Of a stretch of 64,000 bases of DNA, positions 3,345 through 7,500 are shown one piece after another. Source of the stretch: an uncultured Treponema sp. (GTDB taxonomy: Bacteria > Spirochaetota > Spirochaetia > Treponematales > Treponemataceae); NCBI RefSeq assembly GCF_946187725.1, contig NZ_CAMHSK010000004.1, forward strand, positions 62,001 through 126,000, read 5' to 3'. The notes beneath the pieces are model-generated. The model did not search any database and had not been told where the DNA came from. It saw only the letters and a program-made list of their open reading frames with translations. Numbering within the stretch: the first letter of the stretch is position 1; every line of letters begins with the position of its first letter. The position numbers and the translations under genes were made by a program.

Positions 3345-3683
3345 TTATTCTATTAACAGTTTTATATTGTCCACAACAGAATTAATTTCCTCTTCTGTCG
3401 CTTTTTCTATAAAATCACAGTTTCTTTGTCTATAATCAAGATTTTTTACCTGATCACTTAAAATACAGCCGTTGATTGAATGATTTTCCAATACAATTTC
3501 AAAAGGATAACCTTTTATATGGCTTGTGATAGGACAGAACAAAGCAAGACCGATTTTCTGATTGTATTTTTTCTGAGAGATGCAAATTGCAGGACGACGA
3601 CCTTTTTGTTCATGACCTGCTTGCGGATTAAAATCGAGCCAAACTAAATCACCTTTTTCTGGAGTATAATTTGAAGCTACCAT
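3345..3683 (-). CDS. mazF: MazF/PemK-family endoribonuclease toxin
   Basis: A 112-residue protein, the usual MazF length. The N-terminus has the family signature: GDLVWLDFNP followed by GHEQKGRRPAICIS. Further on are FCPITS and the C-terminal IEKATEEEINSVVD helix. By family it cleaves mRNA at short sequence motifs unless bound by MazE. The ATG at 3683 overlaps the stop of the antitoxin gene (AATGGTAG), so the two are translationally coupled. A tandem mazE-mazF operon on the minus strand is clear. Cleavage specificity cannot be read from the sequence. Confidence 0.93.
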   Translation of the reverse strand: MVASNYTPEKGDLVWLDFNPQAGHEQKGRRPAICISQKKYNQKIGLALFCPITSHIKGYPFEIVLENHSINGCILSDQVKNLDYRQRNCDFIEKATEEEINSVVDNIKLLIE

Positions 3684-3910
3684 TCTTCATTACCTACCGA
3701 ATTGCCAGTTGATATTTCTGAATGGATGTTTTCTGAAGTGACCATAGCCAGCATGTCATCAAGAGTCTTTTTTTGAGGAAGAATTACCATTTTCCCTTTT
3801 TCTGCGATTACTTCAATTTTACTGCCATTCTTTACATTGTTGTCTTTTGCCCAAAGAGAAGGAATCCTAAAACCGAGGCTGTTGCCCCATTTCTGAACTA
3901 CTGCCTGCAT
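3677..3910 (-). CDS. mazE: MazE-family antitoxin
   Basis: A 77-residue protein starting MQAVVQKWGNSLGFRIP, the classic AbrB/MazE swapped-hairpin DNA-binding fold, with an acidic, flexible C-terminus that would wrap the toxin. The start at 3910 is chosen because GGAGG lies just upstream and the family always begins here; the open frame continues further upstream without family homology. It binds MazF and should repress its own promoter. The C-terminal tail after about residue 50 (SENIHSEIS) is poorly conserved, as usual for specificity regions. Confidence 0.92.
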   Translation of the reverse strand: MQAVVQKWGNSLGFRIPSLWAKDNNVKNGSKIEVIAEKGKMVILPQKKTLDDMLAMVTSENIHSEISTGNSVGNEEW

Positions 3911-4253: not shown

Positions 4254-5690
4254 CTATTCCAGCACTTCCCAAAAGCCGGTCTTGTTGGAGCCAAGTCGCC
4301 TTATTTTGCCTTCTGCCACGAGCTTTTGAAGGCTGCGCGTGATTGTGGCACGGGAAAGAGATAGAATTTCGGCGAATTCTTCTTTGGTGCGGCGGGGATT
4401 TTCTTTAAGCTGCTTTAGGAGCAGGATTTCTGGCTTTTCGCTGGCCTTTTCTTTGCTTTTGCTCGTCGCAAGGGGACTTTTTCTGTATTTTTCTTCCAGC
4501 AGATTCTGAGCTTCGGCAATGCGCTCGCCAAGTTTTCTTGCCAGGGCCTCTTTTTTGTCCTGGGAAAGGCGACGGAGGGGCTTTAGAAAATCTTTGTACC
4601 AGTCCTGAATGCCGTCCAGGGCCGAAAAATCCACCAGGCTGTAAAGTTTTTCCATTGGAAGAGAATTGAATTGCGCAAGCTGCTTTTCCTCAAAGGGCTT
4701 TGAATCAATCCAGGGGGAAGCCATTTCGTTAATTTCAAAATCAACCTTATTGAGGAACATTGACTTTCCTGAGTCGTAGACCGGGGCGACACCCAGCCAC
4801 TGGAGCGTTTCGGCATGTCGCAGAAAGCCAAGGTTGTTTGAGTGCCGGTCCTCATTCGCAATTATGAAGTCGAGCAGGATGATTTTTAGAATGTTGATTT
4901 CTGCATCGGGAATTTTAAGGAATTCGCATCGTTCAATCAGCTTTTCGAAATCGTATTTCCCGTCGTTGAGCTTGATTCCCTGATAAACTGATTCCATTGG
5001 CACAAGCTCCGTGTTTTCGTCTACCATGTCGGGACAAATGCAAAAATACTGCTCGTCACGGATTTCAAGCTCATAGGGGACATAATTGATTTTGAGGCGG
5101 CGGCAGATTTCGCTTGCAAGCACTTCGTTGAGAGCTTCCTGCTGTTCGGTGCCTGTTCCTGCTTTTTCGAGAAAATTCTTTCCGTTTTTGCGAACCCAGC
5201 GTTTGGGAAGTTCTCCGTTCGTGGTGTTGTCGGGCGAGAGGGAATTTGAATGTTTGTTGAGGGCTTTTGACGCACTCATCAGGCGCAGACCGATTGCCTC
5301 ATCGTATTCGTTCGTGAAGAAATTGATGTCTTCCCACCAGATTCTGCCCATGTCACTCATATTGCAAATCCAGTACTGATCGGAAAGGCTCAGATAATAG
5401 CTTTTTTTGGCAAGTTCTTCGTTTGTTTCAAGCTCCAGCTCGGAAAGCATGGTGCGGAAATCCCGGCGGCTGTACGGAATCATGCGGTTGTTGAAGAATT
5501 CCTCTAGTTTCTGGCAAAGACCGTATTCGTTTTCTTCGGATGCGATTCCATTTGTAAAAAGATGGGGCGGAAGATGGAGCAGATTGAAAATCTTTTTTAT
5601 GGCAACGATGTATTCATCCTTGTCCTGTTCAAAGAGAAGGATGGGAATGTTTTTCTTGTATAAAATGAAGAGTTTGTTCTCCAGAGCCAT
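4254..5690 (-). CDS. HipA-like Ser/Thr kinase fused to a C-terminal winged helix
   Basis: 478 residues. The kinase core is recognised by IIANEDRHSNNLGFL (catalytic Asp and metal-binding Asn of the HipA family) and VAPVYDSGKSMF (second metal Asp), at about residues 275-315. The N-terminal 170 residues are of the type seen in stand-alone HipA-domain proteins. After a Lys/Glu-rich linker (about 410-430) comes a winged helix: RRTKEEFAEILSLSRATITR, then SLQKLVAEGKIRRLG. HipA kinases are toxins that phosphorylate proteins such as GltX; their DNA-binding partner HipB is normally a separate protein, and none is present. Here DNA binding may be built in. The start at 5690 sits six bases from a strong -10 box, so the mRNA is probably leaderless. 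The gene also begins 131 bp after the preceding cyclase gene, inside a repeat array. Confidence 0.8.
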   Translation of the reverse strand: MALENKLFILYKKNIPILLFEQDKDEYIVAIKKIFNLLHLPPHLFTNGIASEENEYGLCQKLEEFFNNRMIPYSRRDFRTMLSELELETNEELAKKSYYLSLSDQYWICNMSDMGRIWWEDINFFTNEYDEAIGLRLMSASKALNKHSNSLSPDNTTNGELPKRWVRKNGKNFLEKAGTGTEQQEALNEVLASEICRRLKINYVPYELEIRDEQYFCICPDMVDENTELVPMESVYQGIKLNDGKYDFEKLIERCEFLKIPDAEINILKIILLDFIIANEDRHSNNLGFLRHAETLQWLGVAPVYDSGKSMFLNKVDFEINEMASPWIDSKPFEEKQLAQFNSLPMEKLYSLVDFSALDGIQDWYKDFLKPLRRLSQDKKEALARKLGERIAEAQNLLEEKYRKSPLATSKSKEKASEKPEILLLKQLKENPRRTKEEFAEILSLSRATITRSLQKLVAEGKIRRLGSNKTGFWEVLE

Positions 5691-5695
5691 GACTA

Positions 5696-5823
5696 ATTTT
5701 ATCGGCTCATTTTTGCGAATGTCAAGGGAAAAATGTAAGTTATCGGCTCAAATTTTGAAAATATCGGCTCATTCTGTAAAAAGTCTACGAAAAATCGGCC
5801 TTATTTGCTCTTTTATCGGCTCA
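5696..5823 (-). promoter_or_regulatory. hipA-like promoter with five phased operator repeats
   Basis: On the plus strand the word ATCGGCTCA occurs at 5701, 5742, 5763 and 5815, and a partial ATCGGC at 5794. Steps are 41, 21, 31 and 21 bp, close to whole helical turns, so all copies face one side of the DNA. On the minus strand -35 is TTGACA (5725-5720) and -10 is TAAAAT (5701-5696), with an 18-base spacer holding one repeat. The farthest repeat begins with the TGA stop of the upstream cyclase gene. Autoregulation by the kinase's own winged helix is inferred. Confidence 0.75.
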
Positions 5824-7500
5824 TTTTCTCCGCAAATCTTCGTGCTGCTTGTAGAATTCTTCCTTGTCTGCATACATGGCTTTGTCGGCCCGTTCCGCGA
5901 CGGATTTGAAATCTTTGTCGATTCCGTTTTTGAAAGTGGCAGCCCCGATTGAAACTGCGAGCGTGAAATCAAATTCGTTTTCTTCGTTGAAGTCTGCGAC
6001 TGCTTTATTGAAGGCGGCAATTTTCGCCTCAACATCTTCTTTCTCATCTTCAATCACAACCACAAATTCATCTCCGCCAGTTCGGAAAACCGTTTTTTCA
6101 TCGAAAGCGATTTTAAGAGCACTTGCCGCCCCTTTGATAAGCGCATCGCCCATTTCATGACCAAGAGTGTCGTTGAGGTGTTTGAGTCCGTTCACATCGC
6201 AAACATATACCGTGAAATTTGCCATTCCTTCATCAATCTTCATTTCGATTGCGGATTGGTGCTTTAGGTATGCGGCCTTGTTGCGGCATCCTGTCATAAA
6301 GTCCTTGTAAGCCATGTCCCTTATGTGACCAATATATTCGCTCAGTTCCACTTCGATTTTTCGGATTGAAGACGCGAGCATTCCAAACTCATCCTTTGAG
6401 TAGACAGGAATCTTCGTGTTCAGCTCACCGTGAGCGATGTAATGTGCCGACTGATTGATTATTTCAATCGGTTTTACAATTTTGTTCGTCACAATGCCAA
6501 TCACGCTAATCGCTATTGTCAATGACACGATGAACAAAATCGCCAGCTGCAAGAACATCTGGTGCTGCAATGAAATAAGCTGCTCTTTTGGAACAGAAAG
6601 CGCGAGCAACATTCCGTTTTTAAGCATTCCCAAAATAAGAACCTGCATGCCATCTTTCCATTCGTATTCGTAAGTTGTTTTTGAGTCGGCATATTTAGCG
6701 GAAAGAAATTTCGTCAAATGAGAAAGGTCTTTGTCAGTGCAAAATTCTTCAGATGAAAGACCTGACGGAAAATCCTTGTGATAAATAAAATCGCCTTTAG
6801 GGTTCACAAGAATGCCGGATGAATTTCCGTAGTCAAGACTGTCGATTTCGGAGCGTAATGAAAGGAGCGTGATTTCAACCCCGACTACGCCGCAGAATTT
6901 GCCGTCAGAAAAAACAGGCGACAAATATGAAATCATCGGAGCAAAATCTTCTGCATTAATGCCAGGATATGTGCCAATCCACATTGGAATTTTATTTTCT
7001 TCTGCCGCATAAAACCACGGAATATGCTCTCTTGAATCTTTGCCGCGCTTTGCAATATCGAAGGTCAAATTGATGTAATCGCCGTCTTTGTCGGTTGTGA
7101 AGCGAAAATGATTCGCCGAGCCGTTCACCGTATTCAGAAGATACAGGCACTTCGATGAGTCTGTTTCGTTTGGATTCGGGCAGAAGTAAATCGTTTTGAC
7201 GAATTTCTGGTCATCGAAAGCCAGAACTGATTTTTCGAAAAGCTCTTCATAGAATTTCTCGTCATAATGCTTGTTGCGGCTTGCGATAAAATTGTTCAAT
7301 CTGCTGACATTTTGCTCTATCCCAGAAAATGCCGTGTTGAGCACGGTGATTTTCTCTTCCAGAAGAAAGTGCATTGAATCCGCCGAGTACTGAAAAATTG
7401 CGGTACGGACATAAGAAATCGAGACTGTGCCGACAATCACCCACAGACAGAGAATCATTATTATGTAGGAAAGAGCGATACGAGTGCGTATTGATTTCAT
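5821..7500 (-). CDS. Membrane diguanylate cyclase: Cache, HAMP, GGDEF
   Basis: 559 residues. Transmembrane helix at about 8-30, an extracytoplasmic Cache sensor (about 35-310), a second helix (about 320-345), HAMP (about 345-395) and a C-terminal GGDEF domain with FRTGGDEFVVV near residue 485. The active site is intact. There is no RxxD inhibitory site five residues upstream, so product feedback may be absent. The ATG overlaps the stop of the upstream cyclase gene (ATGA), so these genes form one operon with the FliG-like gene. The product would be c-di-GMP made in response to a periplasmic small molecule. The ligand is unknown. Confidence 0.88.
   Translation of the reverse strand: MKSIRTRIALSYIIMILCLWVIVGTVSISYVRTAIFQYSADSMHFLLEEKITVLNTAFSGIEQNVSRLNNFIASRNKHYDEKFYEELFEKSVLAFDDQKFVKTIYFCPNPNETDSSKCLYLLNTVNGSANHFRFTTDKDGDYINLTFDIAKRGKDSREHIPWFYAAEENKIPMWIGTYPGINAEDFAPMISYLSPVFSDGKFCGVVGVEITLLSLRSEIDSLDYGNSSGILVNPKGDFIYHKDFPSGLSSEEFCTDKDLSHLTKFLSAKYADSKTTYEYEWKDGMQVLILGMLKNGMLLALSVPKEQLISLQHQMFLQLAILFIVSLTIAISVIGIVTNKIVKPIEIINQSAHYIAHGELNTKIPVYSKDEFGMLASSIRKIEVELSEYIGHIRDMAYKDFMTGCRNKAAYLKHQSAIEMKIDEGMANFTVYVCDVNGLKHLNDTLGHEMGDALIKGAASALKIAFDEKTVFRTGGDEFVVVIEDEKEDVEAKIAAFNKAVADFNEENEFDFTLAVSIGAATFKNGIDKDFKSVAERADKAMYADKEEFYKQHEDLRRK

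What the first reader, a model, noticed from the sequence alone, without database searches (positions are those of the whole stretch)
4254..5823. HipA-like kinase with its own winged helix and five helically phased operators
Seen: ATCGGC(TCA) at 5701, 5742, 5763, 5794 (partial) and 5815, with steps 41, 21, 31, 21 bp, all near whole turns; one copy lies between -35 TTGACA and -10 TAAAAT. The protein has HipA catalytic motifs and a C-terminal winged helix, with no separate HipB. Inferred: toxin kinase and repressor are in one chain that binds one face of its promoter and may be controlled by autophosphorylation.
Basis: partly seen in the sequence, partly recalled or inferred. Interest (0 to 1): 0.75.

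Follow-up and report, generated by a model that had tools for sequence, protein, structure and literature searches.

The report
Kinase reading its own promoter repeats
A bacterial toxin-like kinase carries its own DNA-reading domain, which very probably shuts off its own gene by docking on evenly spaced repeats in the promoter, and the same 'self-addressing' DNA unit turns up in unrelated defence-like enzymes across bacteria, often written into the coding sequence of the protein itself.

Summary
The repeats are real. TGAGCCGATAAA-type units stand in the promoter of a 478-aa HipA-like kinase with a C-terminal winged helix (wHTH). Such arrays precede 20 of 21 kinase genes of this genus that keep the wHTH and 0 of 22 homologues that lack it; spacings are whole helical turns (phase coherence 0.90 at 10.5 bp, 47 steps), and the promoter-proximal copy overlaps the -10 box.

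The same wHTH subtype on unrelated Fic and AlbA_2 proteins is preceded by a linker CODED by the same unit (AATGAGCC[GT][AG]TA, peptide NEPI). Across 119 dereplicated wHTHs the DNA unit co-varies with the recognition helix and wing and hardly with the rest of the domain. One wing residue (Asn or Asp) goes with one base (A or G): 28:3 versus 4:61, with at least 19 independent switches. Synonymous codons follow the wHTH type.

So I conclude, without a binding experiment, that the wHTH reads these units and that the kinase represses itself (confidence 0.83). Toxicity and autophosphorylation control are untested. The HipA form is a new variant of the enzyme-plus-HTH autorepressor (CccR, HipH/YjjJ). 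Operators written into the interdomain linker look new and are directly testable.

The parts
4254..5690 (-). hipA-like kinase with C-terminal winged helix, 478 aa
   Evidence: ORF; Pfam HipA_C 7e-10, HTH_24 2e-06; fold CtkA/HipA/HipT
4752..5189 (-). HipA_C kinase core (residues 168-313), with invariant K176, N279-x-D281-R-H-x-x-N286 and D306 in 12 homologues
4257..4433 (-). winged helix (residues 420-478)
4314..4352 (-). recognition helix (residues 447-459; S446-RATITR-452); its residues co-vary with repeat bases -8 to -3
   Evidence: model; covariation
4284..4286 (-). wing residue N469; Asn goes with A, Asp with G at base -1 of the repeat unit
5698..5709 (-). operator 1 (promoter-proximal), TGAGCCGATAAA, overlaps the -10 box
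5739..5750 (-). operator 2, TGAGCCGATAAC
5760..5771 (-). operator 3, TGAGCCGATATT, 21 bp from operator 2 (the most conserved step among homologues)
5791..5802 (-). degenerate operator, AAGGCCGATTTT
5812..5823 (-). operator 4 (distal), TGAGCCGATAAA; its TGA is the stop codon of the upstream ORF
5720..5725 (-). -35 TTGACA
5696..5701 (-). -10 TAAAAT, ending 5 nt before the ATG (leaderless or nearly leaderless mRNA likely)

Best explanation
The gene encodes a HipA-family kinase that is its own repressor. Its C-terminal winged helix recognises a directional 12-bp unit, TGAGCC[G/T]ATAAA. Several units in direct orientation, whole helical turns apart, let several molecules sit on one face of the promoter, and the proximal unit overlaps the -10 box, so occupancy excludes RNA polymerase. 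When the protein is scarce or displaced the gene is expressed and kinase accumulates. Shown by computation: arrays go with the wHTH, steps are helical, and recognition-helix and wing residues co-vary with the bases of the unit across unrelated enzymes. Inferred: physical binding, repression, and kinase toxicity or a defence role. The wider class (Fic, AlbA_2/RecG-C and HipA enzymes with this wHTH) keeps its units in the promoter, in the codons of the linker just before the wHTH, or in both.
For: Arrays upstream of 20 of 21 wHTH-bearing and 0 of 22 wHTH-less kinase homologues; 47 steps cluster at multiples of 10.5 bp, R=0.90, nominal Rayleigh p about 3e-17, related loci not fully independent. 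Genus-wide scan of 200 genomes: 20 genomes with paired units, reversed control zero in all but one; of the loci inspected, all but four adjoin a HipA-wHTH gene, and one of those four is a Fic gene with the same wHTH. Same unit in coding linkers of Fic and AlbA_2 proteins with the same SRAT[VI]TR helix. Covariation peaks in recognition helix and wing: mean Z 3.8 and 3.2, against 0.6-0.7 elsewhere, and is repeated in a held-out set. Wing Asn/Asp against base A/G: 28:3 vs 4:61, p=1e-16; at least 19 independent switches, 28 of 31 closest pairs obey. Six wHTH residues predict 66% of the variable bases, against 43% for six random other residues. Synonymous codons: GAG in all 20 EP dipeptides listed with SRAT[VI]TR, GAA in all 7 with SRST[VI]LR, mostly against the genes' own usage. 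Own-unit copies in promoters of other genes: 16 at one mismatch or fewer, against 0.16 expected. Several genes without linker repeats carry the expected unit in the promoter. Precedent: the Fic-HTH protein CccR represses its own promoter (PMC9755527).
Against: No binding or expression experiment. All HipA-wHTH genes found form one clade within one genus, so arrays and wHTH could share one origin; the independent evidence comes from the other enzymes. L172 has only one clear unit. Activation rather than repression is possible in principle. The structure model is modest (mean pLDDT 67.7), though helix and wing are well predicted.
Confidence: 0.83

Rival explanations
1. The repeats are operators of a separate regulator encoded elsewhere; the kinase's wHTH has another target.
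For: No binding was measured; many wHTH regulators bind upstream of genes they do not encode.
Against: Unit bases follow the recognition helix and wing of the protein encoded by the same gene, across several phyla; arrays vanish in homologues without the wHTH; no other clustered site in the genome.
Confidence: 0.06
2. Linker repeats exist for the peptide or by replication slippage, and the match between wHTH and linker DNA is inheritance of neighbouring DNA (domain shuffling with its linker).
For: Linker and wHTH are adjacent; tandem 12-mers can grow by slippage; most units sit in one reading frame.
Against: Covariation is concentrated at DNA-contact positions, while helix 1, nearest the linker, shows almost none. 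Synonymous codons follow the wHTH type. GTA and ATA codons are enriched to about 84% against 23-27% in the rest of the same genes. The same units sit in non-coding promoters of HipA and AlbA_2 genes. The encoded peptides are unrelated (EPIN, VTVK, SETS, KTRE, NPTV).
Confidence: 0.08
3. The protein activates rather than represses: phased upstream sites recruit polymerase, and the proximal site is incidental.
For: Upstream phased sites resemble activator arrays; steps are helical.
Against: The proximal unit is part of the -10 (TAAAAT in the window, TATAAT in L005, L006, L136, L137), and a bound wHTH there should exclude polymerase. The characterised Fic-HTH enzyme CccR is a repressor of its own promoter.
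Confidence: 0.1
4. The repeats are chance or a mobile or recombination element unrelated to regulation.
For: The 9-mer itself is not rare.
Against: Conserved spacing and position in divergent flanks; absent before wHTH-less homologues; reversed-pattern control near zero.
Confidence: 0.01

Closest known systems
CccR of Yersinia pseudotuberculosis (Fic enzyme with C-terminal HTH), PMC9755527
   Same: Toxic enzyme and C-terminal HTH in one chain; represses its own promoter by direct binding (shown there by mobility shift, footprint and reporter).
   Different: Fic, not HipA; binds an inverted repeat of 10-bp arms 26 bp apart as a dimer, not a phased series of direct repeats.
HipH / YjjJ (PMC8262856, PMC9948734)
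   Same: Monocistronic HipA-family kinase fused to an HTH, no HipB.
   Different: HTH is N-terminal there, C-terminal winged helix here; no match to the YjjJ family above its cut-off. No self-operator work was met in the passages of PMC8262856 that I read; PMC9948734 was not opened.
HipBA and HipBST
   Same: HipA-family kinase fold; promoter autoregulation.
   Different: The DNA-binding antitoxin is a separate protein (HipB) on palindromes; here it is part of the kinase chain and sites are direct repeats.
CtkA of Helicobacter pylori
   Same: Closest solved kinase (sequence, fold).
   Different: Only its kinase part matches; the C-terminal wHTH found here lies outside the match.
SoFic-type Fic-wHTH proteins
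   Same: The Fic protein L162 with the same wHTH subtype and the same DNA unit matches PADLOC's SoFic model, including its C-terminal part.
   Different: Catalytic domain; DNA units lie in the coding linker rather than in the promoter.

Membership tests
HipA-like kinase (PF07804) | HipA_C domain and kinase catalytic residues | tested here: met
   39.3 bits vs cut-off 30.5; D281-R-H-x-x-N286, D306 and K176 invariant; fold matches CtkA/HipA/HipT
Type II toxin-antitoxin hipBA | adjacent hipB antitoxin gene | tested here: not met
   neighbours are a GGDEF-type ORF and mazE/mazF
Type II toxin-antitoxin hipBA | kinase toxic to the cell and neutralised by a partner | not testable with these tools
   needs expression assay
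HipH / YjjJ | N-terminal HTH extension before the kinase | tested here: not met
   the wHTH is C-terminal (residues 420-467); NCBIfam YjjJ model 23.8 bits vs cut-off 401
HipL | C-terminal HIRAN domain | tested here: not met
   no HIRAN among Pfam matches
Enzyme-HTH autorepressors (CccR-like in working) | C-terminal HTH recognises sites in its own promoter | tested here: inconclusive
   strong comparative evidence, no binding experiment
Enzyme-HTH autorepressors (CccR-like in working) | Fic catalytic domain | tested here: not met
   HipA_C instead

The most novel reading that the evidence does not exclude
A widespread class of effector enzymes (Fic, AlbA_2/RecG-C, HipA) is 'self-addressed': a C-terminal wHTH reads a 12-bp unit that the gene itself carries, usually as tandem repeats inside the codons of the linker just upstream of the wHTH, sometimes in the promoter. 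The interdomain linker is then at once peptide and operator, and recognition follows a readable residue-to-base code from which binding specificity can be predicted.
Probability: 0.65. Interest if true: 0.9.

Novelty: new variant of a known kind. Interest (0 to 1): 0.82.

Why it matters
It turns a vague 'HipA-like protein with HTH' into a testable single-gene circuit, and it yields a residue-to-base recognition code for a winged-helix family (for example wing Asn to A, Asp to G) drawn from natural covariation. If the coding-linker operators are real, protein linkers in many Fic and AlbA_2 defence-like genes double as regulatory DNA, a layer that annotation does not see, and this gives a way to predict how these single-gene systems are kept silent.

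Tried and rejected
First pattern search had too narrow a gap and found one pair only; widened. Array hits L034, L039 and L043 are not beside a HipA homologue; not followed further and treated as chance. Viral contigs gave only three relatives of the wHTH. An alignment (A3) contained one sequence not taken from any record; it was discarded unused and rebuilt as A4. A first held-out pass anchored units on AAA alone and mis-phased units in other reading frames; units were re-phased by a rule that never looks at base -1 or at bases -8 to -4 before testing; the rule was made after seeing the mis-phasing, so the held-out test is not fully blind. The rule 'Ala at column 25 goes with C at -4', strong in the first set, was not confirmed in the held-out set (1 of 3). 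No HipA-wHTH gene was found outside the genus in 393 genomes of the phylum. Ten paper searches found no description of linker-coded operators in Fic or AlbA_2 proteins; the library is open-access only, so absence is weak evidence.

Full report
Observation. The window holds, on the minus strand, a 478-codon gene (4254-5690) with a HipA_C kinase domain and a C-terminal winged helix. Upstream, ATCGGCTCA is exact at 5701, 5742, 5763 and 5815, with a partial copy at 5794. On the gene's strand the unit is TGAGCCGATAAA. The best promoter-like match of the region is TTGACA-18-TAAAAT on the same strand, and its -10 overlaps the proximal unit. The two-copy pattern occurs nowhere else in the 3.27-Mb genome; isolated 11-mers elsewhere are at the level of the reversed control, so no regulon is visible and the array looks autoregulatory.

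Relatives. In 98 genomes of the genus, homologues fall in two sets. Those that keep the wHTH have several units upstream; those that end before it have none. With degenerate copies allowed: 20 of 21 against 0 of 22. The three wHTH-bearing genes missed by the strict pattern (L132, L136, L137) also carry units, some degenerate. Steps are 21, 31-33, 40-44 and 52-54 bp. Over 17 distinct step patterns (47 steps; one locus contributes none) the phase at 10.5 bp is coherent (R=0.90, mean phase 0.0 bp); related loci are not fully independent, so the nominal p is a guide only. The central 21-bp pair is the most constant element. In one subclade the proximal unit itself supplies a consensus -10 (GAGCC-TATAAT). 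Named relatives are uncultured Treponema, mostly from gut samples of ruminants and other herbivores.

An unexpected second location. Scanning 200 genomes for paired units also gave a gene that is not a kinase: a Fic protein (L044/L162) whose wHTH is about 61% identical and whose linker before the wHTH is coded by AAAGAGCCGATAAATGAGCCGATAAATGAGCCGATAAAT, peptide KEPINEPINEPIN. Of 120 entries with related wHTHs from Treponema genomes, the GTDB species collection and viral contigs, many on Fic or AlbA_2 proteins, 82 have such tandem 12-bp units in the linker. The peptides are unrelated to one another (EPIN, DTVN, VTVK, NPTV, SSET, EKTR), but the DNA mostly follows NNNNNCNN-TAAA.

Covariation. In 61 dereplicated wHTHs (under 70% identity), HipA promoters included, mutual information between wHTH positions and unit bases peaks at S446, A448, T449, T451 and R452 (recognition helix) and N469 (wing), with K436 at the start of helix 2; most other positions are near zero. 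A held-out set of 58 (under 70% identity to each other and to every training sequence) shows the same localisation. Examples, read off the aligned list: SRAT[VI]TR goes with GAGCC, S-AT[VI]KR with GACCC, SRST[VI]LR with GAACC, VRT[VI]QR with GTCAC. Glu at column 28 goes with GG at -4/-3 (13 of 19 against 2 of 100). Wing Asn goes with A, Asp with G (28:3 vs 4:61, p=1e-16). On a tree built only from non-contact columns this wing residue has switched at least 19 times; joint changes of residue and base number 24, against a mean of 39.8 under permutation (minimum 33 of 500), and 28 of 31 closest disjoint Asn/Asp pairs obey. Not every rule held: Ala-448 with C at -4 was not confirmed in the held-out set.

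DNA, not peptide. The dipeptide EP in SRAT[VI]TR proteins uses GAG in all 20 cases listed, although most of those genes prefer GAA; in SRST[VI]LR proteins it uses GAA in all 7, in genes that mostly do not prefer GAA. Val before Asn/Lys in linkers is GTA in 84% against 23% of Val codons in the rest of the same genes; Ile is ATA in 84% against 27%. Own-unit copies at one mismatch or fewer stand in the promoters of 6 of 69 testable genes (16 copies, 0.16 expected), including 12-bp tandem arrays in reverse orientation. Genes without tandem linker repeats carry the expected unit in the promoter: VRTVQR with wing Asn has TGTCACTATAAA (L205, L207, L211, L212, L236), whereas VRTVQR with wing Asp has TGTCACTGTAAA (L206, L213).

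Mechanism. I conclude that the wHTH reads the unit and that the window's kinase represses its own promoter by occupying the -10, with further molecules on the same face (inferred from geometry). What relieves repression is unknown. A direct precedent for the logic, not for the family, is CccR, a Fic enzyme with a C-terminal HTH that binds its own promoter and represses it (PMC9755527). A role in phage defence is a lead only: the kinase matches PADLOC's candidate PDC-M03A and the Fic relative matches SoFic. Kinase activity is probable (conserved catalytic residues; fold); toxicity is untested. Control by autophosphorylation is open: by eye, the position equivalent to HipA Ser150 is T156, which is Ala or Val in some relatives, while T157 is invariant.

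Kinship. It is a HipA-family kinase, but not hipBA (no hipB), not HipH/YjjJ (HTH at the other end) and not HipL (no HIRAN). wHTH-less relatives in the same genus are sometimes preceded by a RelB-type gene, which suggests that DNA binding is supplied by a partner there and by fusion here.

Limits. All functional statements are computational. HipA-wHTH was found only in one genus. The literature library is partial. Which location of the units, promoter or linker, acts in vivo in Fic and AlbA_2 genes is unknown.

Noticed in passing
window 3345-3910 (-): A MazE/MazF pair (PF04014, PF02452) lies directly downstream of the hipA-wHTH gene.
   Followed up: partly
window 5821-7500 (-): The distal repeat contains the stop codon of the upstream GGDEF-type ORF, so the array begins exactly where that gene ends.
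   Followed up: no
L014, L020, L021, L030, L148: HipA-like kinases without wHTH are preceded by a RelB/DinJ-like gene (PF04221 for the L020 gene), an arrangement I did not see in the HipA survey passages read.
   Followed up: partly
L007 and L009, between array and ATG: An insert of about 110 nt with inverted repeats separates the array from the start codon (compare L008); a small palindromic element or leader structure.
   Followed up: no
window 5688-5701: The -10 box ends 5 nt before the ATG, so the kinase mRNA is probably leaderless in this genome, whereas some relatives have a GAGG-like ribosome site.
   Followed up: no
L176 and L191, promoters and linkers: AlbA_2 genes of Bacteroidales carry TTAGGT[GA]ATAAA-like units about 21 bp apart in the promoter, and in L191 also 21 bp apart in the linker: helical phasing in another enzyme family.
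   Followed up: partly
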